This document shows, in pieces, positions 7,297 to 18,516 of a stretch of 64,000 bases of DNA; within the stretch, counting starts at the first letter, position 1, and every line of letters starts with the position of its first letter. Made by a program: the position numbers and the translations under genes. The notes under the pieces were generated by a model. It made no database searches. It was not told where the DNA came from and saw only the letters and a list, made by a program, of their open reading frames with translations. Location of the stretch: positions 2,914,001 through 2,978,000 of the forward strand of contig NZ_VFQE01000001.1 of the NCBI RefSeq assembly GCF_006717095.1, in the 5' to 3' direction. Source of the DNA: Blastococcus colisei. GTDB taxonomy: Bacteria > Actinomycetota > Actinomycetes > Mycobacteriales > Geodermatophilaceae.

Positions 7297-8966
7297 AGTG
7301 CGGCCGCCGCGGCGCGCCCGGCGGTTCGCCCGGAGAAGAGGCAGCCGCCGAGGAAGGTTCCCTCCAGCGACCGGTAGCCGTGCATTCCCCCTCCGCCGAA
7401 GCCGGCGATCTCACCCGCCGCGTACAGCCCGGGGAAGACCTCGCCGCCCGGCCGGAGCACCCGGCCCGACAGGTCGGTCTCGAGCCCGCCGAGCGTCTTG
7501 CGGGTGATGATGTTGAGCCGCACGGCGATCAGCGGGCCGGCCTCGGGGTCGAGGATGCGGTGCGGCTGCGCGACCCGGATCAGCTTGTCGCCGAGGTAGT
7601 TGCGCGCCGCGCGCATCGCGTTGATCTGCATGTCCTTGCCGAACTCGTGGGCGATCTCGCGGTCACGGGCGACGATCTCCCGCTCGATCTGCGCCAGGTC
7701 CAGCTCCGGCGTCCCGCCGGTGATCCGGTTCATGCCGGCGACCAGCTCGGGCAGGGTGTCGGCCACGACGAAGTCCTCGCCCTTGTCCAGGAACGCCCGG
7801 ACGGGGGCGGCCATGCCGGCCCTGACCCGGGTCGCCAGCAGACGGACGTCCTTGCCGGTGAGGTCGGGGTTCTGCTCGGAGCCCGAGAGCCCGAACTCTT
7901 TCTCGACGATCTTGTGCGTCGCGATGAACCAGGTGTGCTCGTAGCCGGTCGTGCCGATGTGGGCGAGGGTCCCGAGGGTGTCGAATCCCGGGAACAGCGG
8001 CACCGGGAGCCGCTTCCCGGTGGCGTCGAACCACAGCGACGACGGCCCCGGCAGGATCCGGATGCCGTGGTCGGCCCAGACCGGCGAGTGGTTGGCGATG
8101 CCCTCCGTGTAGTGCCACATGCGGTCGCTGTTGACGACGCTCGCGCCGGCGTCCTCGGTGGCCTGCAGCATCCGGCCGTCGACGTGGGCCGGAACGCCCG
8201 AGAGCATCCGCTGCGGGGCCGGACCGAGCCGGGCCGGCCAGTTCCGGCGCACCAGCTCGTGGTTGGCGCCGATGCCGCCCGCCGTCACGACGACGACCTG
8301 GGCGCCGATCTCGAAGTCACCGGTCTCGGTGCGGGAGCTCGCCTCGCCGCGGGCGACGGAGCTGGGCTCCAGGACGGCACCACGGACGCCGCTGACCGCA
8401 CCACCGGTGACCACGAGCTCGGACACGCGGTGCCGGAAGCGCAGCTCCACCCGGCCGGCCGCGACCGCGGCGCGTACCCGGCGGGCGAAGGGCTCGACGA
8501 TGGCGGGGCCGGTGCCCCAGACGATGTGGAACCGCGGCACGGAGTTGCCGTGCCCGGTGGCGGTGTACCCGCCGCGCTCGGCCCAGCCGACCACCGGGAA
8601 GAAGCCGATGCCCTGCTCCTTGAGCCAGGACCGCTTCTCCCCCGCGGCGAACTGTAGGTAGGCCTCGGCCCACTGCCGCGGCCAGTGGTCGGACTCCCGG
8701 TCGAACCCCGCGGTGCCGAACCAGTCCTGCCGGGCGAGCTCGAGGGAGTCGTGCACCCGCAGCCGGCGCTGCTCGGGCGAGTCGATGAGGAACAGCCCGC
8801 CGAAGCTCCACCAGGCCTGCCCGCCGAGGGACGCCTCGGGCTCCTGCTCCAGGAGGATCACCCGCTTGCCGGCATCGGCCAGCTCCGCGGTGGCCACCAG
8901 GCCGGCGAGGCCCGCTCCCACGACGACTGCGTCTGCTTCCGTCCGGCCCGTCTCGTTGCTGGTCAC
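7293..8966 (-). CDS. FAD-binding dehydrogenase (flavocytochrome c / KstD-like)
   Basis: A 557-aa flavoprotein oxidoreductase. The N-terminus has the dinucleotide-binding DAVVVGAGLAGLVATAELA and then LLEQEPEASLGGQAWWSFGG. The C-terminal FAD site is FPGLYAAGEIAGFGGGGMHG followed by SLEGTFLGGCLFSGRTAG. The whole resembles the bacterial FAD-binding dehydrogenase group related to fumarate reductase and ketosteroid dehydrogenases; the substrate is not known. The GTG at 8966 is chosen because the conserved fold starts at once and the codon overlaps the last mini-ORF stop (GTGA). Three tandem mini-ORFs lie directly upstream and supply its GAGGAGG ribosome site. Confidence 0.88.
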   Translation of the reverse strand: MTSNETGRTEADAVVVGAGLAGLVATAELADAGKRVILLEQEPEASLGGQAWWSFGGLFLIDSPEQRRLRVHDSLELARQDWFGTAGFDRESDHWPRQWAEAYLQFAAGEKRSWLKEQGIGFFPVVGWAERGGYTATGHGNSVPRFHIVWGTGPAIVEPFARRVRAAVAAGRVELRFRHRVSELVVTGGAVSGVRGAVLEPSSVARGEASSRTETGDFEIGAQVVVVTAGGIGANHELVRRNWPARLGPAPQRMLSGVPAHVDGRMLQATEDAGASVVNSDRMWHYTEGIANHSPVWADHGIRILPGPSSLWFDATGKRLPVPLFPGFDTLGTLAHIGTTGYEHTWFIATHKIVEKEFGLSGSEQNPDLTGKDVRLLATRVRAGMAAPVRAFLDKGEDFVVADTLPELVAGMNRITGGTPELDLAQIEREIVARDREIAHEFGKDMQINAMRAARNYLGDKLIRVAQPHRILDPEAGPLIAVRLNIITRKTLGGLETDLSGRVLRPGGEVFPGLYAAGEIAGFGGGGMHGYRSLEGTFLGGCLFSGRTAGRAAAAAL

Positions 8967-9043
8967 GTGTCCTCCTCGCTGGCGCTCGTCGGCCACGTGC
9001 CAACGGTGCTCTGTTCCCTGCGTGACCTCGCACGCTCGGTCAC
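8963..9043 (-). CDS. Mini-ORF 3 of tandem coupling array (26 aa)
   Basis: Identical in peptide to unit 1. Its TGA overlaps the GTG start of the FAD dehydrogenase (GTGA, 8963-8966). Its codons for Glu-Glu-Asp-Thr are the GAGGAGGACAC ribosome site of the dehydrogenase. Confidence 0.5.
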   Translation of the reverse strand: MTERARSRREQSTVGTWPTSASEEDT

Positions 9044-9120
9044 GTGTCCTCCTCGCTGGCGCTCGTCGGCCACGTGCCAACGGTGCTCTGTTCCCTGCGT
9101 AACCTCGCACGCTCGGTCAC
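9040..9120 (-). CDS. Mini-ORF 2 of tandem coupling array (26 aa)
   Basis: Same peptide as its neighbours apart from one Ser-to-Leu change (VTERARLRRE), which makes a TTA codon, rare in this GC-rich DNA. GTGA overlaps at both ends. GAGGAGGACAC of unit 1 is its ribosome site. Confidence 0.5.
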   Translation of the reverse strand: MTERARLRREQSTVGTWPTSASEEDT

Positions 9121-9197
9121 GTGTCCTCCTCGCTGGCGCTCGTCGGCCACGTGCCAACGGTGCTCTGTTCCCTGCGTGACCTCGCACGCTCGGTCAC
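9117..9197 (-). CDS. Mini-ORF 1 of tandem coupling array (26 aa)
   Basis: GTG at 9197 to TGA at 9117. The peptide begins VTERARSRRE, has QSTVGTWPTS, and ends ASEEDT. The stop overlaps the next GTG (GTGA). It is the unit farthest from the dehydrogenase, and no clear ribosome site precedes it. Confidence 0.5.
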   Translation of the reverse strand: MTERARSRREQSTVGTWPTSASEEDT

Positions 9198-9432
9198 GTG
9201 AGCGACGCTAGCGCCAACCGGCCGGCGTGCGCTGTCGCCCCGGGGAACGACGCGGGGTGGGAGGCGCCCGGACCGGCCGGCGCCGATGGTGCGCACGGCG
9301 GTGAGTTCGGCGATCGAGCGATCTCCTGTCGTCAGGAGCCGGTCCGCGCGCCTCGCCCGACAGCTGATGAGTGGACCTCAGCAGCCCAGATGCGGTCGTC
9401 GAACGGGTCGCGCAGGTCCACTGGTCGCCTGG
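9198..9432. other. Non-coding relic stretch left of tnpB element 1
   Basis: No convincing gene. Bases 9331-9356 repeat 10931-10956 (26 bp, two mismatches) in the same orientation, one copy on each side of the tnpB element; the right copy is the 3' end of the membrane-protein gene at 10932. A minus-strand fragment, VDLRDPFDDRIWAAEV, ends at that shared stop and faintly recalls a PIN-domain C-terminal piece, but it is too short to assign. The leftmost part may hold the promoter for the dehydrogenase operon; no clear -35/-10 pair was seen. Confidence 0.4.
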
Positions 9433-10923
9433 CCCCCCTCACGATTTGGGTGAGATGCCGGAGCACCGTCACGTCGTCGTGAGCGCCCCTGTCCGGGGCG
9501 TCCAGTGCTTACGCCGCGCCGGGGCGTGGCTGGCTGGTTCTTGCTTCACCGGGCAGCACCGCCGCGACCTGGCTGGCCGTGGCTGACACCCACCCTCCAC
9601 AGGCATGCCGACGTGTGCCGGCTGACGGGCCGCCCGGGTGGCGGTCCCCGGCCTGGGTCACGCACGGGCAGGACCCGAGCGTGTGCTCGCCCCAGGCGGC
9701 GAGGTTGGCGGCGGCGTTGACGTCCCGGTCGGCGACATGGCCGCAGGAGTCATCTGCACACCGGTAGCTGCGCTCGGCGAGGGTGAGCTTGGGTCTCACT
9801 CCTCCGCACGCCGAGCACGTCTTCGAGCTCGCTAACCAGCGGTCCGCGACGATCAGGCGCCCACCGTGGCGGGCCGTCTTGTAGGCCAACTGCCGGGCCA
9901 ACTCTCCCCAGCCCTGGTCACCGATCGCGGCCGCGAGTGACCGGTTGGCCATCAGGTTCTTCGTCGCCAGATCCTCGACCACCACGTCGCCATGCTCGCG
10001 GGCAAGCTCGGCGGTGAACCGGTGCAACGCGTTCGCGCGGACGGCGGCAGCGCGGGCGTGTGCGCGACCGAGCCGGGCGACGGCCTTGCGCCGGTTCGCC
10101 GAGCCCCTCTGCGCCCGGGGGACGGCGCGCTGCAGGTGCTGAACGTGGCGCAGCCGGTCGCGGAGCGCCCGGACGCCGGCAACTCGACGATGACCTGGCC
10201 GTTCGCGTCGGCGACGACAGCTGCGGTCTTCACACCACGGTCCACGCCGACGACCGGCCCACCAGGGGCGGTGTGCTGCTCGACCGACGCCCGCGCCTCG
10301 CGGGTGAAGTTCACTGTCGCGTACCAGTGACCGTCGGAGTGCCTGGTGATGGTGATGTGCTGCAGGGTCGCGTGGCCGCGGCGCAGCAGCCGCCGGAGCT
10401 TCGCCTGCTGCGGGCACGCCGCCGCGATCCGCACGCACCCGTACTTCGCGATCCGCACCCGGCCGTGCTCGAGCGCGAGCCCGTCGCGGACGGTGAATCG
10501 GGCGCGGGCGCGGTGCCTGGCCTTGAATCGCGGGAACCGGCGCCTTCCGGTCAGGAACGCCTGGTGGGCGGTTGCGGCGTCCCGGAGCGCGTACCGGAAC
10601 GTCCACGTCGAGTGCTCCCCGGCCCACGGCGCGACGTCGGGCTTTTCCGCCGTCCAGAGCTTCGCGAGAGTGAAGAACGTCAGGGGCCGGACCCGGTCGG
10701 GCTTGTCGATCCCGTAGGTCGCCTCAGCGGCCCACTGGTCGGCGTTCGCCTTGATCTTCGCGACCGCCCAGTTCCACGCGAACCGGCGAGCGCCGGCGGC
10801 ACGCAGCAGCATCCCGGCGTGGACGTCGGTGGCGTCCAGCCGTACTCGCACCGCTCCGTGGCCCACACCCCGGATAGTGCCGGGTGGGTCGGACAGTTCA
10901 TCTCACCCAAATCGTGAGGGGGG
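9433..10923 (-). mobile_element. TnpB element 1 with terminal inverted repeats and 8-bp target duplication
   Basis: A 1491-bp element. Bases 9433-9457 (begins CCCCCCTCACGATTTGGGTG, then AGATG) are the exact complement of 10899-10923, a perfect 25-bp inverted repeat. TCGCCTGG flanks it at 9425-9432 and 10924-10931. It holds one broken tnpB-like gene and no DDE or TnpA transposase. A 6-bp-stem hairpin (9484-9500) just after the tnpB stop is shared with element 2. Confidence 0.88.
9509..10866 (-). pseudogene. tnpB-like gene, frameshifted
   Basis: Homologue of the intact gene at 15824. The first part (MGHGAVRVRLDATDVHAG to NGQVIVELPAS) is in one frame, the rest (RALRDRLRHVQHLQRAV to the TAA at 9509) in another. 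Comparison with the intact copy puts a one-base deletion near 10172-10174. The RuvC-like acids (GVDRGVKTAAVV, VVVEDLATKNLM, DRDVNAAANLA) and the zinc-binding Cys pairs all survive, so the break looks recent. Without the frameshift it would be about 450 aa. Confidence 0.9.
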
Positions 10924-10931
10924 TCGCCTGG

Positions 10932-11348
10932 TCAGGAGCCGGTCCGTGCGCTTCGCCGTGCGGCCACCCAGGAACGGACTCGGGGCAGGACGGCGAGCAC
11001 CGTCGTGAGCAGCGGGACGAGGACCGTCAGCACGCCGAACGCGCCGCCGCCCCAGCCACCCATCAGGTATCCGGTGAGCACCAGGGCGGCCATGGCGCCG
11101 GCGCAGAGTGCGAGGACCAGCCACGACCGACCGGCGAGGAGCAGGACCACTCCGACGAGGAGCCCGGCCAGGATGACGAGGGGCACGAGGATCAGCAGCC
11201 ACTCGTTCCCGGCGAACTCCCCACCGGAGAAGGCGAGCGCGATGAGCGCGAACACGGCGGGGACCCCTGCGCTGAGGACGCCGAGGACGGCGGCGGCGAT
11301 GGCCGGGACGGGTGGAATGCGGCGGTCGGGCGCGGGCGCAGGGTGCAC
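10932..11348 (-). CDS. Small multi-pass membrane protein, function unknown
   Basis: A 138-aa protein with four hydrophobic segments (starting IPPVPAIAAAVLGVLSAGVP, then LLILVPLVILAGLLVG, LVLALCAGAMAALVLTG and GVLTVLVPLLTTVLAVL) and a short basic tail. The GTG at 11348 is preferred over an ATG at 11408, because the latter would overlap the ABC transporter gene by 43 bp. Element 1 is inserted immediately after its stop codon. No family recognised. Confidence 0.65.
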   Translation of the reverse strand: MHPAPAPDRRIPPVPAIAAAVLGVLSAGVPAVFALIALAFSGGEFAGNEWLLILVPLVILAGLLVGVVLLLAGRSWLVLALCAGAMAALVLTGYLMGGWGGGAFGVLTVLVPLLTTVLAVLPRVRSWVAARRSARTGS

Positions 11349-11365
11349 GTGCGCAGCGTAGGGCG

Positions 11366-13201
11366 TCAGGCCGCCGGAGCCGGGCTCCCGGACGACGAAC
11401 GGCGCCACGAGGCGTGCAACCGGGCGTAGGGGCCCTCGGCGTCGACGAGGTCGGCGTGCGTCCCCCGCTGCACCACGTGCCCGGCGTCGACGACGAGCAC
11501 CTCGTCGGCGCGCTCCGCGGTGGACAGCCGGTGGGCGATGGTCAGCGTCGTACGCCCGTCGGTGAGCCGGTCCAACGCCCGGGTCAGCCGCTGCTCGGTG
11601 GCCGGGTCGACGGCGCTGGTCGCCTCGTCGAGCACCAGCAGGTCGGGGTCGGCCACGTAGGCGCGGGCGACGGCCACGAGCTGCCGTTCCCCCGACGACA
11701 GCGACTCCCCGCGCTGGCCCACCGGGGTGCGCACGCCGTCGGGGAGACCGGCCACCCAGGCGTCGAGCCCGAGGTCCTCGAACGCCGCCACCACCTCGTC
11801 GTCGGTCATCCCCGGGCGCCCGTAGCGGACGTTGTCAGCGACGGTGGCGTCGAACAGGAAGCCGTCCTGCGGCACCATCACCACCCGCGCGCGCAGGGAC
11901 GAGAAGGCCACCTCGTCCAGCGGCACCCAGTCCCCGTCGTCCGACCCGAGCAGCACCCGCCCGTCGACCGGGTCCATCAGCCGGGTGACCAGCTTCGCGA
12001 ACGTGGTCTTGCCCGAACCGGTCTCCCCCACGATCGCCACCCGCCGGCGCGGATCGATGGTGAGCGAGACGTCCCCCAGCGCCAGGCGGGCACCAGGCAC
12101 GTAGCGGAACGAGACGGAGTCGAAGCGCACTCCCAGCGGGCCTGCCGGCAGTTCGTGCACCCGGCCCGGGTCGGCGATGGCGGGGTCGCGAACGTCCGGC
12201 TCGGTGTCGATGACGTCGAGCACGCGGCGGAACCCGGCGACGGCGTTCTGCGCCTCGTTGAGCACCTCGCTCGCGGTCTGGACGGGGGCGACGAACAGGG
12301 TGACCAGGAAGAGGAAGGCCACGAGCGTTCCCGCGGTGATGTCCCCGGCCAGCCCGAGCAGCACGCCGACGACGACCACCGCGGCATTGGCCAGCGCAGC
12401 GACGAACTCGCCGCTGACGAAGACCGCTGCGGTCACCTTCTGCGCGTCGACCTGCGCGCGGTACTGCCGGTCGATCGCGGTGTCGATGCGGGCCGCCGTC
12501 CGGGCGCCGATCCCGTAGGCGCGCACGGTCGGGGCGCCGACGACGGACTCCGCCACGGCCCCGAGGACGTCACCGACCCGTTCCCGGACGACGCCGTAGG
12601 CGGTCGCCAGGCGCTGGGCGAACCACCGGACCGCGATCGCCAGCGGGACGAAGCAGACGAGCACCAGCAGGGTCAGCTGCCAGGAGTAGACGGCCATGAC
12701 GGCGGTGGCCACCACCAGCTGCCCGACGCTGATCAGGCCCAGCACCCCACCCCATTGCATGAAGGTGGAGAGCTGGTCGACGTCGCTGGTGACGCGGGAG
12801 ACCAGGGAGCCGCGGCGCTCGCCCTGCTGGTGCAGGACGGAGAGATCGTGCACGTGCCGGAAGGCGCGCACCCGCAGGTTGGCCAGCGCGGTCTCCGTCG
12901 TCCGGAAGAGGCGGACGTTCATCCGGTAGACCGCGACGGCGGTGATCAGCACGACGACCGCGCAGAGCAGCACCAGCTGCGTGATGAGCCCCATGTCGGG
13001 GTCGCCGTCGGCCAGGCCGCGGTCGATGACCTGCTGGACGGCGATCGGGACGACCACCCGGCCGGCGGTGGCCAGCAGGGCGAGCGCGAAGGTCGCCGGC
13101 AGCCCGCGACGGAACTCGGGCATCATCCGCAGGCCGCGACGCAGGGTGGCGAACGCACCCTCGCGCCGTCGGTCGGCGGGCAGGAGCGGGGCGTCGCTCA
13201 C
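11366..13201 (-). CDS. ABC transporter, fused membrane and ATPase domains (subunit 2)
   Basis: A 611-aa type IV exporter half. Six membrane segments span about residues 35-310. The nucleotide-binding domain has Walker A VGETGSGKTTFAK, Q-loop VPQDGFLF, signature SLSSGERQLVAVARA, Walker B LLVLDEATSAVD and the switch His in TIAHRLSTAE. The signature is LSSGE rather than LSGGQ, typical of one half of a heterodimer. It is coupled to its partner by a GTGA overlap (13198-13201). Substrate unknown; drugs or lipids are usual for this class. Confidence 0.9.
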   Translation of the reverse strand: MSDAPLLPADRRREGAFATLRRGLRMMPEFRRGLPATFALALLATAGRVVVPIAVQQVIDRGLADGDPDMGLITQLVLLCAVVVLITAVAVYRMNVRLFRTTETALANLRVRAFRHVHDLSVLHQQGERRGSLVSRVTSDVDQLSTFMQWGGVLGLISVGQLVVATAVMAVYSWQLTLLVLVCFVPLAIAVRWFAQRLATAYGVVRERVGDVLGAVAESVVGAPTVRAYGIGARTAARIDTAIDRQYRAQVDAQKVTAAVFVSGEFVAALANAAVVVVGVLLGLAGDITAGTLVAFLFLVTLFVAPVQTASEVLNEAQNAVAGFRRVLDVIDTEPDVRDPAIADPGRVHELPAGPLGVRFDSVSFRYVPGARLALGDVSLTIDPRRRVAIVGETGSGKTTFAKLVTRLMDPVDGRVLLGSDDGDWVPLDEVAFSSLRARVVMVPQDGFLFDATVADNVRYGRPGMTDDEVVAAFEDLGLDAWVAGLPDGVRTPVGQRGESLSSGERQLVAVARAYVADPDLLVLDEATSAVDPATEQRLTRALDRLTDGRTTLTIAHRLSTAERADEVLVVDAGHVVQRGTHADLVDAEGPYARLHASWRRSSSGSPAPAA

Positions 13202-14973
13202 GCGACCGCCTCCGCCTGGGAGTACGCACGGACCAGCGCCGCGTACCCGGGGACCTCGTCGAGGAGCTGCTCGTGGGTGCCGCGCGCGAGCACCCGGCCC
13301 TGCTCGAGCCAGACCACCTCGTCGGCGAGGGCGATCGTCGCCTGCCGGTAGGCGATGACCACGACGGTCGCGGGCTCGTCGCTGTCGCGGAGCGCGTCGA
13401 GGATGCGGGCCTCGACCGACGGGTCGACGGCGCTCGTCGCGTCGTCCAGGACCAGCAGCCGCGGCCGCCGGACGACGGCCCGCGCGAGTGCCAGCCGCTG
13501 GCGCTGACCGCCCGACAGCGTCGCCCCGCGCTCGCCGACCCGGGTGTCGAGGCCGTCGGTGAGCGCGGCGACGAACTCGTCGGCGGCGGCCACGCGCAGG
13601 GCTGACCGGACGTCGTCGTCGGAGAACGGCTCGCCGAGGGTGACGTTGCCGCGCACCGTGTCGTCGAAGAGGAACGTGCCCTGGGCGACGAAGGCCGCCT
13701 GACCGCTGACCTCGCCCTCCCGGAGCCGGCGCACGTCCACGCCGTCCAGCAGGACCCTGCCGTCGGCCGGATCGACCAGCCGGACCAGGAGCCCGGCCAG
13801 CGTCGACTTCCCGGAGCCGGTGGGGCCGACGACGGCGACCGTCGTCCCGGCCCGGACGTCGAAGGTGACCCCGCGCAGGGTCGGCGCGGAGGCGTCGGCG
13901 AAGGCGAAATCCACCCCGGCCACCCCGACGGCGGCTCCGCCCGTCGCCACGGCGGAGGCCTCGGACCCGTAGGGCGTCTCCCCCGTCGCCTCGAGCACCG
14001 GGGTGACCCGGTCGAAGCCGGCCAGCGCCCGGGGCAGGTCGGCCAGCACCCAGCCGATCGCACGGATGGGCAACGCCAGCAGGGTGAACAGGTAGGCGAT
14101 GGAGACCAGCTCGCCGGCGTCGGTGCTGCCGTCGGCCACCCGGCCGGCGCCGATCAGCAGGACGGCGAGGGTGCCCAGGCTGGGCAGCGCCTCCATCATC
14201 GGGTCGAACAGGCCGCGCACGCGGCCGACGGCGACCAGCCCGTCGCGCAGCTCGTCGGCCCGGGCCGCGAAGCGCTCGGTCTCCGCCGACTCACGGCCGA
14301 GGGTCTTGACCACCAGCGCAGCGTCGAAGCTCTCGTGGGCGATCTCGCTGACCTCGGCGCGCAACTGCTGGGCGCGCTGCATGCGCGGGCTCATCACCTG
14401 CGAGTAGACGACGTTGACCGCGAAGACCAGCGGGAAGACGACCAGCCCGACCAGGGCCAGGAGCGGGTCGGTGAGCACCAGGACCACCGAGGTGATGGCG
14501 ATCATCACCAGCGCGCCGACGGCGAAGGGCAGCGGCGCGACGAAGTACCAGGCGGCCTCGACATCGGAGTTGGCGTTGGACAGCAGCTGCCCGGTGGGAT
14601 GCCGCGCGTGCCAGGACAGCGGCAGCCGCAGGTACTGGCGGGTGACCCGGCGGCGGTAGTCGGCCTGCAGCCGGAAGCTCATGATCCCGGCGAAGAGCCG
14701 GCGGCCGAGGATGCCGACGATCTTCAGCAGGGCCACGCCCACGATCGCGGCCGACGCGAGGGCGAGCGCGGCGGCCGTGGTGGCCCCCTCGTCGAAGGAC
14801 GGCAGGAGCACGCGGTCGGTGATCTCGCCGATCACCCACGCGCTGGCCACCGTCATCGCGCCGTAGAGGCTGCTGGCGAGGACGGCGAAGGTGAACATGC
14901 CCGGCTGCTCGACGATCCCCCGCCCCACGTGACGGAGCCCGCGCCGCACGACGGCGTCTCGGCGGCGGGCCAC
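13198..14973 (-). CDS. ABC transporter, fused membrane and ATPase domains (subunit 1)
   Basis: A 591-aa half-transporter. The GTG at 14973 (MARRRDAVVRRGLRHVG) has GAGGAG four bases upstream. Six membrane helices, then Walker A VGPTGSGKSTLAG, signature [16 protein letters not shown], Walker B LLVLDDATSAVDPS, where the usual catalytic Glu is Asp, and VIAYRQATI in place of the His switch. These changes mark it as the degenerate-site half of a heterodimeric exporter, with the partner at 11366 supplying the consensus Glu and His. Confidence 0.9.
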   Translation of the reverse strand: MARRRDAVVRRGLRHVGRGIVEQPGMFTFAVLASSLYGAMTVASAWVIGEITDRVLLPSFDEGATTAAALALASAAIVGVALLKIVGILGRRLFAGIMSFRLQADYRRRVTRQYLRLPLSWHARHPTGQLLSNANSDVEAAWYFVAPLPFAVGALVMIAITSVVLVLTDPLLALVGLVVFPLVFAVNVVYSQVMSPRMQRAQQLRAEVSEIAHESFDAALVVKTLGRESAETERFAARADELRDGLVAVGRVRGLFDPMMEALPSLGTLAVLLIGAGRVADGSTDAGELVSIAYLFTLLALPIRAIGWVLADLPRALAGFDRVTPVLEATGETPYGSEASAVATGGAAVGVAGVDFAFADASAPTLRGVTFDVRAGTTVAVVGPTGSGKSTLAGLLVRLVDPADGRVLLDGVDVRRLREGEVSGQAAFVAQGTFLFDDTVRGNVTLGEPFSDDDVRSALRVAAADEFVAALTDGLDTRVGERGATLSGGQRQRLALARAVVRRPRLLVLDDATSAVDPSVEARILDALRDSDEPATVVVIAYRQATIALADEVVWLEQGRVLARGTHEQLLDEVPGYAALVRAYSQAEAVA

Positions 14974-15099
14974 TGGACTCCTCTGGGCGGGACGGTGGGG
15001 GGAACGAGCGTCGGACGTGCTCGGCGATCCTACGTGGTCCTGAGCTCGGCTAACCGTCGTCGGGAGGCCGTGCCAGGGGCATCTCGGTAACCTCCGCCG

Positions 15100-15711
15100 G
15101 TGCCCGCCTCTTCCCGTTCCTTCGCCGAGACCGAGCGCGCCGAACTCGCCGACCTGCTGGCCGAGCTGGGGCCGGACGCACCGACCTGCTGCGCCGGATG
15201 GACGACGGGCCACCTCGCCGCCCACCTCGTGGTCCGCGACCGCCGTCCCGACGCGCTGCCCGGCTACGGCGTCGAGCAGCTCGGCGTCGCCCGCCCGCTC
15301 ACGTCGTGGGCGCACCGGCTGGAGGACCGGCTGCGGAGCTCCACGCCCTACGCGGAGGTGGTCGATCGGGTCCGGTCGGGGCCCGCCCCATGGTTGCCCA
15401 TGGCCTGGCCGCCTGTCGCGCGGCTGCTCAACACGAGCGAGTACGCGATCCACCACGAGGACGTCCGCCGTGCCCAGCCCCGCTGGGAGCCGCGCGTCCT
15501 GCCCCGTGCCGCCCAGGACCAGGTGTGGTCGGCCGTCGAGCTGTTCGCGCGCCGGGCCGCCGGGCGCCGCGGTCTGGTCCTGCGGCGCAGCGACGATCCC
15601 GGGGTCGAGAAGCGCTACGGCGCGGGCGGGCGCACGGTCGAGGGCACGCCGCTGGAGCTGCTGCTCTGGGCGTCGGGCCGCCGCGACGTCGCCCGCGTGA
15701 CCGTGTCCTGA
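15100..15711 (+). CDS. TIGR03085-type metal-binding protein (DinB / maleylpyruvate isomerase fold)
   Basis: A 203-aa protein, divergent from the ABC pair across a 126-bp gap. The GTG start gives MPASSRSFAETERAELADLL. It contains WTTGHLAAHLVVRDRRPD and TSEYAIHHEDVRRAQP, whose His residues fit the metal triad of the DinB_2/maleylpyruvate-isomerase N-terminal superfamily and resemble the actinobacterial TIGR03085 group. Possible thiol-dependent transferase; substrate unknown. Confidence 0.75.
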   Translation: MPASSRSFAETERAELADLLAELGPDAPTCCAGWTTGHLAAHLVVRDRRPDALPGYGVEQLGVARPLTSWAHRLEDRLRSSTPYAEVVDRVRSGPAPWLPMAWPPVARLLNTSEYAIHHEDVRRAQPRWEPRVLPRAAQDQVWSAVELFARRAAGRRGLVLRRSDDPGVEKRYGAGGRTVEGTPLELLLWASGRRDVARVTVS

Positions 15712-15823
15712 CACGCGCGGCGCCGCCTCTTGCCGCCCCCCACTGACAGCCGCTCCTCCCTTACGGTGAGGGTGAGATGGAGGCTGCCTAATCTTGTCGG
15801 TGGTCACCGGCACGATGCCGGTT

Positions 15824-17176
15824 GTGAGCCACGGCGCGGTGCGGGTGCGGCTGGACGTGACCGACGTCCAGGCCGGGATGCTGCTGCGCGCCGCGGGGGC
15901 CCGCCGGTTCGCATGGAACTGGGCGGTCGCGAAGATCAAGGCGAACGCCGACCAGTGGACGGCGGAGGCGACCTACGGCCTGGAGCGTGCCGACCGGGTC
16001 CGGCCGTTGTCATTCTTCACGCTCGCCAAGATGTGGACGACGGAGAAGCCCGACGTCGCACCCTGGGCAGGCGAGCACTCCACGTGGACGTTCCGGTACG
16101 CGCTGCGCGACGCCGCCAACGCGCACGCGGCGTTCCTCGCCGGGGAGCGGCGGTTCCCGCGGTTCAAGTCCCGGCGCCGGGACCGGTCGCGGTTCACCGT
16201 CCGCGACGGTCTCGCCCTCAAGGCCGGCTGGGTGCGGCTGGCGAAGTACGGCTGGGTGCGCATCAGCTCGGCGTGTCCGCAGCAGGCGAAGCTGCGCCGA
16301 CTGCTCCGTCGCGGGAACGCGGTGCTGCAGCACATCACCGTCACGAAGCACTCCGACGGCCGGTGGTACGCCACCGTCAACTTCACGCGTGAGGCGCGCA
16401 CCCCAGCCGCGCAGCGCACCGCGCCGGCCGGGCCGGTGGTCGGCGTCGACCGTGGAGTGAAGACCGCTGCAGTGGTCGCTGATGCGAACGGCCAGATGGT
16501 GGCCGAGTTGCCCGCCAGCCGGGCGCTCCGGGACCGGCTGCGCCACGTCAGACACCTGCAGCGCTCGGTATCCCGGGCACAGAAGGGCTCGGCGAACCGC
16601 CACAAGGCCGTGGCCCGCCTCGGCCGGGCGCACGCCCGCGCCGCCGCGGTCCGCGCGGATGCGCTGCATGCCTTCACCGCACGGCTGGCACGCGAGCATG
16701 CTGTCGTGGTGGTCGAGACCCTGGCGACGAAGAACCTGATGGCCAACCGGGCGCTGGCGGCCGCGATCGGCGACCAGGGCTGGGCCGAGCTCGCCCGGCA
16801 GCTGCAGTACAAGACGGCCCGTCACGGCGGGCAGCTAATCGTCGCGGACCGCTGGTTCGCCTCCTCCAAGACGTGCTCGTCATGTGGTGCGGTGAAACTC
16901 AAGCTCACCCTCGCCGAGCGCAGCTACCGCTGCGATGCGTGCGGCCTGATCTGCGATCGGGACACCAACGCCGCGGCCAACCTCGCCGCCTGGGGCGAGC
17001 ACACGCTGGGCACCTGCCCGTGCGTGATCCAGGCCGGGGACCGCCACCCGGGCGGCCCGTCAGCCGGCGCGAGCCGGCATGCCTGTGGAGGGTGGGTGTC
17101 AGGACCAGCCGTCTCGGCTGGTCCGGTGCTGCCCGGTGAAGCAGGAACCAGCCGGCCACGCGTCAGCGTGGCGTAA
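15824..17176 (+). CDS. tnpB: TnpB-like RNA-guided nuclease (IS200/IS605 OrfB family)
   Basis: A 450-aa protein. The GTG at 15824 (MSHGAVRVRLDVTDVQAG) is chosen by match with element 1; an ATG lies nine bases upstream. N-terminal helix-turn-helix region with GARRFAWNWAVAKIKAN. The RuvC-like nuclease acids are in VGVDRGVKTAAVVAD, VVVETLATKNLM and CDRDTNAAANLA; the zinc ribbon is CSSCGAVK followed by YRCDACGL. All key residues are present, so it is probably active. TnpB proteins cut DNA using an RNA made from the element's right end. No TnpA is present here. Confidence 0.9.
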   Translation: MSHGAVRVRLDVTDVQAGMLLRAAGARRFAWNWAVAKIKANADQWTAEATYGLERADRVRPLSFFTLAKMWTTEKPDVAPWAGEHSTWTFRYALRDAANAHAAFLAGERRFPRFKSRRRDRSRFTVRDGLALKAGWVRLAKYGWVRISSACPQQAKLRRLLRRGNAVLQHITVTKHSDGRWYATVNFTREARTPAAQRTAPAGPVVGVDRGVKTAAVVADANGQMVAELPASRALRDRLRHVRHLQRSVSRAQKGSANRHKAVARLGRAHARAAAVRADALHAFTARLAREHAVVVVETLATKNLMANRALAAAIGDQGWAELARQLQYKTARHGGQLIVADRWFASSKTCSSCGAVKLKLTLAERSYRCDACGLICDRDTNAAANLAAWGEHTLGTCPCVIQAGDRHPGGPSAGASRHACGGWVSGPAVSAGPVLPGEAGTSRPRVSVA

Positions 17177-17184
17177 GCACTGGA

Positions 17185-17201
17185 CGCCCCGGACAGGGGC
17201 G
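17185..17201 (+). ncRNA. Candidate hairpin of a TnpB guide RNA (element 2)
   Basis: CGCCCC-GGACA-GGGGCG lies eight bases after the tnpB stop. The block from the TAA through this hairpin (about 30 bp) is identical in the two elements although the DNA just beyond differs. Guide RNAs of TnpB elements come from this position in known families; here that role is inferred. The element 1 counterpart is at 9484-9500. Confidence 0.45.
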
Positions 17202-17300
17202 CTTACGGAAGAAAGCGGATGGCACCGCCATCTCACTCTCACCGTAAGGGGGGCAGCCGCTTCACTGCCGCGACGTGGCGCGTCGAGGGGAGCAGGCCTC

Positions 17301-17702
17301 ATGGGTGACCGGACGATGCTCGCTGCAGGAACCTTCTTCGCGGCGGCGACCGCTTGTACGACAGCCGTCTCCCTGCGGCAGCCGCAGCTTCCCGACGAGC
17401 CGTTCGGGATCCGGTTCCCCGGCCGGGTGCCCGTCCACCTGGCGCTCGGACTCGGGTCCGGGGTGGCGGCACCCTGGCCCATGCCGGTCATCGCGCTGGC
17501 CGCCGCGATGCGGGCGGGGTCCGGCGCCTCGTGGCCCGAGCGGACGAGCGCCGTCCTCGGTGCGGTCGTGCTCGTGGGAACGATCGCCGAACCCGCGTCG
17601 TGGGGACTGCGGCCCAGGTCGTCCGCGGCTCGGGCGACGGTCGCCCTGAACCTGCTGTCCGGCGCCGCGCTCTTCCTCGCAGGGACCCGGGCGCGGCGCT
17701 AG
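17301..17702 (+). CDS. Small integral membrane protein, function unknown
   Basis: A 133-aa protein preceded by GAGGGGAGC. About four hydrophobic stretches: TMLAAGTFFAAATACTTAVS, LALGLGSGVAAP, MPVIALAAAM and AVLGAVVLVGTIAEP. The short loops carry Arg-rich patches, and the C-terminus is TRARR. No recognisable motif. It is convergent with hisF, 19 bp between stops. Element 2 is inserted just upstream and may have displaced its promoter. Confidence 0.65.
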   Translation: MGDRTMLAAGTFFAAATACTTAVSLRQPQLPDEPFGIRFPGRVPVHLALGLGSGVAAPWPMPVIALAAAMRAGSGASWPERTSAVLGAVVLVGTIAEPASWGLRPRSSAARATVALNLLSGAALFLAGTRARR

Positions 17703-17721
17703 CCCGGGCAGGTCGCCCCGG

Positions 17722-18516
17722 TCAGCGCAGCGGGGTGTCGGCCTCGTGGCGGACCGGGACACCGGCCCCGGCGAGAGCGTCCTTGACCTCACCGACGCGC
17801 AGGACGCCGAAGTGGAAGACGCTGGCCGCCAGGACGGCGTCGGCGCCGGCCGCGACCGCGGGCGGGAAGTGCTCGGCGGCGCCGGCTCCCCCGCTGGCGA
17901 CCAGCGGCACCCTGACCTCGCGGCGCACCTGACGGATCAGGTCGGTGTCGAAGCCCGCGCGGGTGCCGTCGGCGTCCATGGAGTTGAGCAGGATCTCCCC
18001 GGCCCCGAGCTCCGCGGCCCGGATGCACCACTCGACAGCGTCCTGACCGGTCCCCCGGCGCCCGCCGTGCGTGGTGATCTCGAAGCCCGAATCCGTCGCC
18101 GCGCCGTCCTGGCAGCGCCGGGCGTCCAGGGACAGCACCAGCACCTGGTTGCCGAACCGGTCGGCGATCTCGGCGATGAGGTCGGGGCGGGCGACCGCGG
18201 CGGTGTTCACCGCCACCTTGTCCGCGCCCGCCCGCAGCAGCCGGTTCACGTCCTCGGCGCTGCGCACCCCGCCCCCGACGGTCAGCGGGATGAAGACGCT
18301 CTCCGCCGTCCGGCTGACCACGTCGTAGGTGGTCGCCCGGTCACCAGAGCTCGCGGTGATGTCGAGGAAGGTGAGCTCGTCGGCGCCCTCGGCGTCGTAC
18401 ACCCGGGCCATCTCGACCGGGTCGCCGGCGTCGCGCAGGTCGACGAAGTTGACGCCCTTGACCACGCGCCCGGCGTCGACGTCCAGGCACGGGATCACCC
18501 GAACGGCCAGACTCAC
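17722..18516 (-). CDS. hisF: Imidazole glycerol phosphate synthase, cyclase subunit
   Basis: HisF joins ammonia from HisH to PRFAR and closes the imidazole ring. It is 264 aa, a (beta/alpha)8 barrel. Landmarks: [19 protein letters not shown] (catalytic Asp), [26 protein letters not shown] (second catalytic Asp), [17 protein letters not shown] and [17 protein letters not shown] start overlaps the TGA of a 36-codon mini-ORF (GTGA, 18513-18516), whose GAGGAGG is the ribosome site. Confidence 0.96.

What the first reader, a model, noticed from the sequence alone, without database searches (positions are those of the whole stretch)
9433..10923. TnpB element with terminal inverted repeats and target duplication
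Perfect 25-bp inverted repeats and 8-bp direct repeats (TCGCCTGG) are hallmarks of DDE-type cut-and-paste transposition. IS200/IS605 elements, where TnpB belongs, have neither. The element has no transposase of its own. It may be a passenger moved in trans by a DDE transposase that recognises these ends, a new vehicle for TnpB.
Basis: partly seen in the sequence, partly recalled or inferred. Interest (0 to 1): 0.85.

Follow-up and report, generated by a model that had tools for sequence, protein, structure and literature searches.

The report
TnpB nuclease carried by DDE transposon
A bacterial RNA-guided DNA cutter (TnpB), so far reported only in two other kinds of mobile element, here appears to ride in a cut-and-paste-type transposon whose end sequence also seems to form part of the cutter's guide RNA.

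Summary
In detail: perfect 25-bp inverted repeats and the 8-bp duplication TCGCCTGG. A second, intact copy lies at 15755-17253 with its own duplication. All 11 loci of this tnpB subfamily found in 108 genomes of the family carry such an end. The same ends, 8-bp duplications and target motif CTSA-N8-TSAG occur on an element encoding a transposase-like protein (Blastococcus xanthinilyticus) and on miniature elements. That protein has D, D, E and CxxH motifs; relatives match IS1249/IS256 profiles below cut-off. No match to it was found in the window genome, so tnpB was probably moved in trans. In 10 tnpB copies the 3' repeat arm pairs with tnpB-side DNA (9 perfectly, one with a mismatch); none of 30 other ends tested pairs perfectly. 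The repeat thus probably doubles as guide-RNA scaffold, with the guide starting in the target duplication. [quoted passage not shown] Transposition, the RNA and cleavage are inferred, not shown.

The parts
9425..9432 (.). Left copy of 8-bp target-site duplication TCGCCTGG (copy 1)
9433..9457 (+). Terminal inverted repeat of copy 1 at the tnpB 3' side; on the minus strand it is the 3' end of the predicted omega-RNA scaffold
9433..9560 (-). Predicted omega-RNA 3' region of copy 1 (core motif, hairpins, terminal stem closed by the repeat arm)
   Evidence: alignments A4/A5
9509..10627 (-). tnpB copy 1, downstream open frame: RuvC/zinc-finger half (Cas12f1-like_TNB, OrfB_IS605)
9952..10866 (-). tnpB copy 1, upstream open frame: N-terminal half (HTH_OrfB_IS605); frame broken relative to the other half
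10899..10923 (-). Terminal inverted repeat of copy 1 at the tnpB 5' side
10924..10931 (.). Right copy of TCGCCTGG, followed by TCAG (= CTGA on the tnpB strand)
15747..15754 (.). Left copy of 8-bp target-site duplication CAGCCGCT (copy 2), preceded by CTGA
15755..15779 (+). Terminal inverted repeat, tnpB 5' side, copy 2 (CCTCCCTTACGGTGAGGGTGAGATG)
15815..17176 (+). tnpB copy 2, intact, 453 aa; matches TnpB proteins of known structure
17130..17253 (+). Predicted omega-RNA 3' region of copy 2, ending at the repeat
17229..17253 (-). Terminal inverted repeat, tnpB 3' side, copy 2 (CCCCCCTTACGGTGAGAGTGAGATG)
17254..17261 (.). Right copy of CAGCCGCT; would be the first 8 nt of the guide if the scaffold ends at the repeat

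Best explanation
The element is a non-autonomous transposon whose only recognised gene is tnpB. It is mobilised in trans by a Mutator-like (IS256/IS1249-related) DDE transposase that recognises the 25-bp ends, prefers CTSA-N8-TSAG targets and duplicates the central 8 bp. A TnpB from an older source, IS607 or IS200/605-like, was captured by this transposon family and its guide RNA was refitted: the terminal repeat at the tnpB 3' end is one strand of the terminal stem of the omega-RNA scaffold, and its G-run may pair upstream. The scaffold therefore ends at the transposon boundary and each insertion writes a new guide that begins with the target duplication. The nuclease would cut alleles lacking the element and so help keep or spread it. 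Shown by sequence: ends, duplications, shared target motif, shared ends with a transposase-like element, stem covariation, purifying selection on tnpB. Inferred: transposition in trans, omega-RNA processing, guide start, cleavage.
For: Ends and duplications: 10 of 21 element places have an exact 8-bp duplication, a different one at each. All 11 tnpB loci have an end, 8 of 11 both. Same kind of ends plus duplication on a transposase element and on a relic of it, L066. Target motif CTSA-N8-TSAG: 65 of 72 positions at 9 insertions against a random mean of 24.7, 0 of 20000 placements as high. Stem: a perfect 7-bp partner in 9 of 10 tnpB 3' ends (one mismatch in the tenth), 0 of 8 tnpB 5' ends, 0 of 22 ends of 11 other elements. 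Covariation score 0.099 against 0.064 shuffled, 0 of 500. Transposase relative L068: IS1249 E 3.4e-6, IS256 E 1.6e-4, both below cut-off; best PDB match of the profile is 6xg8, Mutator family transposase, E 0.049. tnpB dN/dS 0.25-0.29 in three pairs. Of 29 nearest outside relatives 6 have an upstream IS607-type recombinase motif; 26 of 29 have no flanking repeat pair at the score of 15 that all 8 two-ended tnpB copies reach. Element-free orthologue of site 2.
Against: No match to the transposase in the window genome, and no autonomous element with the exact TCACGATTT end variant of copy 1 among 112 genomes. The copy in the finding has a broken tnpB. C4 copy L003 and G052:C8 have both ends but no duplication. 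Half of the exact duplications need the boundary moved by 1-3 bases in all. The covariation rests on ten related sequences and three pairs; the shuffle control does not remove relatedness; further pair types do not exceed shuffles (259 of 500), and one slid control (-3) has as many or more double changes (4 pairs, 5 cells, against 3 and 5), though only 47% of its cells pair. Single folds of other ends give up to 15 arm-internal pairs (L038 both ends, L066 11 and 13, one tnpB 5' end 14). Three of 29 outside relatives have repeat arms scoring 15-16, as low as the weakest tnpB copies (15 and 16), but without a flanking duplication by eye. The tree groups the subfamily (support 0.867, long branch) with relatives that lack the recombinase motif, so the source lineage is open. 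The transposase matches IS256/IS1249 only below curated cut-offs; its fold could not be predicted.
Confidence: 0.82

Rival explanations
1. The tnpB elements descend from a once autonomous element that held both tnpA and tnpB and lost tnpA; they were a two-gene transposon rather than a captured passenger.
For: tnpA- and tnpB-bearing elements share ends and target motif. G052 and G034 each hold a transposase relative and tnpB copies or a fragment.
Against: No element with both genes was seen: the transposase gave no tblastn match in the tnpB-bearing loci tested, and tnpB gave none in L032 or in L059, L060, L061, L065 and L066. At least one other single-gene cassette with nearly intact duplication (cupin, L038) has the same ends, which fits repeated passenger capture.
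Confidence: 0.1
2. An ordinary IS200/IS605- or IS607-type tnpB element inserted inside a pre-existing DDE miniature element and is carried passively, with no adaptation of the guide RNA to the repeat.
For: The protein's best NCBIfam model is IS607_TnpB (287.8 bits, below its cut-off of 350), and some outside relatives sit beside an IS607-type recombinase.
Against: The internal stem strand changes together with the repeat: CTCACGA with TCGTGAG in w1 and C4, CTTACGG or CTTGCGG with CCGTAAG in the others, one mismatch in G009. I did not recognise an inner IS boundary between the tnpB stop and the repeat, but made no separate search for one.
Confidence: 0.08
3. The repeats and duplication are coincidental, or the hairpin of an IS200/IS605-type right end mistaken for a terminal repeat.
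For: A hairpin does lie at the 3' end, as recalled for IS200/IS605 right ends.
Against: Ten exact 8-bp duplications and a shared palindromic target motif, and the same ends on elements without tnpB. In one search none of 8 tnpB 5' ends has the perfect 7-bp partner.
Confidence: 0.01

Closest known systems
Fanzor1 / Fanzor2* in eukaryotic DNA transposons (PMC10711439, passages read)
   Same: RNA-guided TnpB-like nuclease inside a cut-and-paste transposon with terminal inverted repeats and target duplications, including a non-autonomous element (SfAV) that encodes only the Fanzor; the paper predicts that the terminal repeats form part of the guide-RNA scaffold.
   Different: Bacterial TnpB, a bacterial Mutator-like transposase, a variable 8-bp duplication that cannot be fixed scaffold sequence (in the paper the duplication is predicted to be part of the scaffold), and here no RNA or activity data.
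IS607-family elements with TnpB
   Same: Best NCBIfam model of the protein, below cut-off; six of 29 outside relatives have an IS607-type recombinase motif upstream; a similar core RNA motif in part of the relatives.
   Different: No serine recombinase match in the two tnpB frames that fill most of copy 1; terminal inverted repeats and 8-bp duplications instead.
Prokaryotic Mutator-like transposons, p-MULT / IS256 family with the IS1249 model (PMC3942029, passages read)
   Same: Inverted repeats within 18-39 bp starting with C, 8-bp duplication, D...D...C(2)H...E motifs, 108-117 residues from D2 to E.
   Different: Scores far below curated family cut-offs; the C(2)H motif lies 21-29 residues after D2, against 11-19 in the paper; L059 has D in place of E; an RNA-guided nuclease as cargo; a palindromic CTSA-N8-TSAG target.
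Mobile insertion cassettes (ends of an IS around passenger genes without transposase; concept recalled, papers seen only in the search listing)
   Same: Ends of an IS around one non-transposase gene (tnpB, cupin; GNAT without duplication).
   Different: Here one passenger is a nuclease whose guide RNA seems to use the transposon end.

Membership tests
IS200/IS605 | HUH (Y1) transposase, or mobilisation by one at hairpin ends | tested here: not met
   None matched in the two tnpB frames that fill most of copy 1; the ends are shared with a DDE-like element
IS200/IS605 | No terminal inverted repeats, no target duplication (recalled) | tested here: not met
   25-bp repeats and 8-bp duplications
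IS607 | Serine recombinase TnpA | tested here: not met
   None matched in copy 1; motif present upstream of 6 of 29 outside relatives of the protein
IS607 | TnpB of the IS607 kind | tested here: inconclusive
   Best NCBIfam model is IS607_TnpB but 287.8 bits is under its cut-off of 350; the tree does not group the subfamily with the recombinase-bearing relatives
RNA-guided nuclease TnpB | TnpB family match with RuvC D/E/D residues and zinc finger | tested here: met
   guided_TnpB 222.4 bits, cut-off 100; matches TnpB structures, with D, E and D aligned to the best chain
RNA-guided nuclease TnpB | Guide RNA made from the 3' end, cleavage next to a TAM | not testable with these tools
   Only predicted structure and covariation
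Mutator-like (p-MULT) transposons | Inverted repeats of 18-39 bp with terminal C (PMC3942029) | tested here: met
   25 bp, first base C at most ends; some ends begin A, G or T
Mutator-like (p-MULT) transposons | Direct repeats of 8 or 9 bp (PMC3942029) | tested here: met
   10 exact 8-bp duplications among 21 places
Mutator-like (p-MULT) transposons | DDE triad with 99-138 residues from D2 to E and C/D(2)H 11-19 residues after D2 | tested here: inconclusive
   D2 to E 108-117 in four proteins; C(2)H present in four but 21-29 residues after D2; L059 has D in place of E
IS256 family (NCBIfam IS256 / IS1249) | Curated score cut-off | tested here: not met
   L068: IS1249 26.5 bits of 300, IS256 20.8 of 150; P0001: neither listed at E <= 1
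Mutator-like (p-MULT) transposons | RNase H fold | not testable with these tools

The most novel reading that the evidence does not exclude
A bacterial counterpart of Fanzor transposons in which the two machines are matched: the transposase's target motif (CTSA on the tnpB 5' side) doubles as the TAM, so that every insertion in the right orientation has an empty allele that its own newly written guide, starting with the 8-bp duplication, can cut. In 6 of 6 tnpB insertions with a full or 7-of-8 duplication the tnpB 5' side is a perfect CTSA, against 1 of 6 perfect on the other side; five asymmetric cases all in one direction have a chance of (1/2)^5, about 0.03. The same vehicle also moves other single genes, a general trans-mobilised cassette system.
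Probability: 0.35. Interest if true: 0.9.

Novelty: new variant of a known kind. Interest (0 to 1): 0.82.

Why it matters
[quoted passage not shown] This is a bacterial case on the other side of that line, with several copies, an apparent partner transposase and a visible solution to the boundary problem: the transposon end is written into the guide-RNA scaffold. It makes the question testable in ordinary laboratory bacteria, and suggests that TnpB genes without a TnpA should be checked for DDE ends.

Tried and rejected
Rejected: chance repeats; IS200/IS605 or IS607 as the present vehicle. Led nowhere: Rfam on 9000-17800, no match; transposase in plasmids, no match, and in viral contigs (33 candidate stretches, none confirmed); an own-genome match L004 of 59 bp at 78% was looked at but not followed; orthologues of site 1 too diverged beside the site to read one copy of the 8-mer; L068 has inverted repeats but no duplication that I could see; L112 pairs two ends 4 kb apart without duplication. 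In the class-wide search for ends 9 of 394 genomes matched, 7 of them outside the family; most of those matches have 3 mismatches. Of the seven I fetched two in longer form (L182, an exact end; L183) and saw one end only in each; the other five were not examined.

Rows left out of counts and faults found on checking: the 21 places merge two pairings of L065 and leave out one cross-pairing in L038; L034 reaches 7 of 8 only with both boundaries moved by two, and I do not count it. One search counts 9 of the 10 exact-duplication elements; L059, the distant transposase with different ends, was left out and scores 3 of 8. Three 7-of-8 elements are printed there but not counted; L036, also 7 of 8, was not shown. 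The motif was written down from six tnpB copies and L037 and then applied to all, so the count is partly on the data that suggested it; L032, L066 and L108, not among those, score 22 of 24. Searches use 8 two-ended tnpB copies and 11 other elements (one search adds two one-ended tnpB 3' ends); L065 and L112 were left out. The RNA alignment has 10 of 12 tnpB-bearing loci; the fragments in G097 and G034 lack the 3' part. Locus L150 is cut by a contig end, so read its downstream side wrongly; redid it (no repeat arms in the 552 bases held, core motif present with 2 mismatches). L157 has 719 N and is only partly testable. In the tree the L150 row is a 72-residue piece and the root is the midpoint, so I use it only as a caution.

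Full report
Observation. The arm matches nowhere else in the window at up to 3 mismatches and 0 times on average in 100 shuffles. Between the arms is tnpB on the minus strand in two overlapping frames, that is, broken. A second copy on the plus strand, 15755-17253 (1499 bp), has ends that differ slightly from each other, its own duplication CAGCCGCT, and an intact 453-codon tnpB. A third copy lies on contig C4 of the same genome, with both ends, a broken tnpB and no duplication.

The ends define a transposon family. A pattern for the ends was found in 13 of 112 genomes of the family and a second version in 21 of 108. In one search I count 42 places for the pattern against 1 match for the reversed control. 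In the class 9 of 394 genomes matched, 7 outside the family, most at the limit of 3 mismatches, one exact. I scored ends in the fetched loci with a position matrix and paired them. Of 21 element places, 10 have an exact 8-bp duplication, allowing each boundary to move by up to two bases: two window copies, L029, L032, L033, L037, L059, L066, L074, L108; five of these need no move. Four more have 7 of 8 (L036, L038, L079, L111). The elements hold different things: tnpB; a 464-aa protein (L032); a relic of that protein (L066); 320-350 bp with no recognised gene (L037, L108, L111); a cupin gene (L038) and a GNAT gene (L041, no duplication).

The likely mobiliser. The 2071-bp element of B. xanthinilyticus (L032/L042) encodes P0001 and has the duplication GCGCCCGC. 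P0001 matches no Pfam or NCBIfam family meaningfully and no solved structure (best E 1.4). Its first 400 residues hit 9 of 107 genomes of the family at E <= 0.001, several of them distant or partial, and not the window genome. The two-row profile hit 3 of 394 genomes of the class at E <= 1e-10. Its relatives L059, L068 and L069 lie between inverted repeats of their own; L059 has an exact 8-bp duplication, L069 one by eye, L068 none that I saw. Aligned, the four share D154, D220, C245 and H248, with E328 in three and D in L059; D2 to E is 108-117 residues and D2 to C 21-29. L068 hits IS1249 (E 3.4e-6) and IS256 (E 1.6e-4) below the curated cut-offs and Pfam Transposase_mut weakly (E 0.0068). 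The profile's best PDB match is Mutator family transposase 6xg8 at E 0.049. PMC3942029 (passages read) gives for prokaryotic Mutator-like elements repeats of 18-39 bp with a terminal C, direct repeats of 8 or 9 bp, 99-138 residues from D2 to E and a C/D(2)H motif 11-19 residues after D2. All fit in kind, except that the last motif lies further away here. I call it Mutator-like, not a member of IS256.

Shared target motif. At nine insertions with an exact duplication (five tnpB, two transposase, two miniature elements) the flanks read CTSA-N8-TSAG: 65 of 72 positions, 12 of 18 sides perfect, against a mean of 24.7 in 20000 random placements, none as high. The tenth, L059, with different ends, does not fit (3 of 8). 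Shared ends, duplication length and target preference on elements with and without transposase are the main argument for movement in trans.

The tnpB subfamily and the vehicle go together. In 108 family genomes the window's TnpB hits E <= 1e-25 in 6 genomes, in 16 rows that I count as 11 loci. All 11 carry an end beside tnpB and 8 carry both. Of these 8, five have the exact duplication, one has 7 of 8, and two (C4 copy, G052:C8) have none. In the class search (31 of 394 genomes at E <= 1e-50) the matches outside the window genome are 37-45% identical. Of 29 such loci, 6 have an IS607-type recombinase motif upstream; 26 have no flanking repeat arms reaching a score of 15 and 3 have arms of 15-16 without a flanking duplication by eye, while the same routine finds arms of 15-25 at 8 of 8 two-ended tnpB copies. 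The three intact copies are under purifying selection, dN/dS 0.26, 0.29 and 0.25. So a TnpB seems to have changed vehicle. From which is open: its best NCBIfam model is IS607_TnpB (below cut-off), but the tree groups it, at support 0.867 and on a long branch, with relatives in which I found no recombinase.

The repeat is part of the guide RNA. The 3' ends of ten tnpB copies share a core motif GTGAAGCAGGAACC, also present in 15 of 29 outside relatives at up to 2 mismatches (14, L150) and absent from 161 kb of control sequence. They share an invariant 6-bp hairpin and then a stem whose second strand is the repeat arm. The strands change together: CTCACGA with TCGTGAG in copy 1 and the C4 copy, CTTACGG or CTTGCGG with CCGTAAG in seven others, and one mismatch in G009. 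A perfect 7-bp partner is present in 9 of 10 tnpB 3' ends, 0 of 8 tnpB 5' ends and 0 of 22 ends of 11 other elements; allowing one unpaired base the counts are 10, 1 and 3. Over the whole structure 96.0% of cells pair and the covariation score is 0.099 against 0.064 shuffled (0 of 500). Pairs with change on both sides number 3 against 0.9 (17 of 500 as high), further pair types do not exceed the shuffles (259 of 500), and sliding by -3 gives 4 such pairs with 47% of cells paired. RNAalifold also pairs the terminal G-run with an upstream GCCC; those pairs do not vary and so prove nothing. In PMC10711439 (passages read) ISXfa1 has a pseudoknot involving position -3 of its guide RNA, and the repeats of Fanzor transposons are predicted to be part of the scaffold. 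The present case would be the bacterial parallel.

Mechanism and its steps. Shown by sequence: ends, duplications, target motif, the associated transposase-like gene, the covarying stem, selection on tnpB, and an element-free orthologue of site 2 whose alignment to the joined flanks runs without a gap across the junction, with a short but better-than-shuffled left flank (33 of 60 letters; 0 of 5000). Inferred: the transposase acts in trans; the RNA ends at the repeat; the guide starts with the duplication; TnpB cuts element-free alleles and so favours retention, as proposed for other TnpBs (recalled). An open lead is that the tnpB 5' side, where a TAM would lie, is always a perfect CTSA: 6 of 6, with the other side perfect in 1 of 6. 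An orientation bias of the transposase would explain it too.

Novelty. Eight answered searches of the open-access library listed no report that I recognised of a prokaryotic TnpB in a DDE transposon; listings were capped. I read passages of PMC10711439, PMC9956272 and PMC3942029, and no whole text. [quoted passage not shown] Subscription papers and most preprints were not searchable, so the claim is limited to that library.

Noticed in passing
8961-9200: Tandem array of 3.1 copies of a 77-bp unit, 98% matching, just left of copy 1.
   Followed up: no
9331-9357 and 10931-10957: 27-bp direct repeat (25 of 27) on both sides of copy 1: the end of the gene right of the element recurs about 70 bp left of the duplication, a possible local duplication.
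   Followed up: partly
L038 3534-4319; L041 3571-4358; L034 3439-5958; L182 from 4033; L183 from 3989: Cassettes with the same kind of ends and other genes: cupin (7-of-8 duplication, motif perfect on both sides) and GNAT by Pfam (no duplication), a pair of apparent LuxR-type regulators in L034 read by eye; L182 and L183, outside the family and with one end only, appear by eye to carry a VOC/PhnB-like and a GNAT gene.
   Followed up: partly
L059 2726-4491: The distant transposase element sits in the middle of a palindromic repeat (GGCGTTTTGTGCACAAAGCGCCATGG...), so this lineage may target such repeats.
   Followed up: no
L062 2489-4402; L063 2487-3823: Distant relatives of the transposase; L062 has extra copies of the N-terminal zinc-ribbon-like segment, and no strong family-type ends were found by either, possibly domesticated.
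   Followed up: no
L038 376-425: Two diverged ends of different type abut outer end to outer end, as if two elements had inserted side by side.
   Followed up: no
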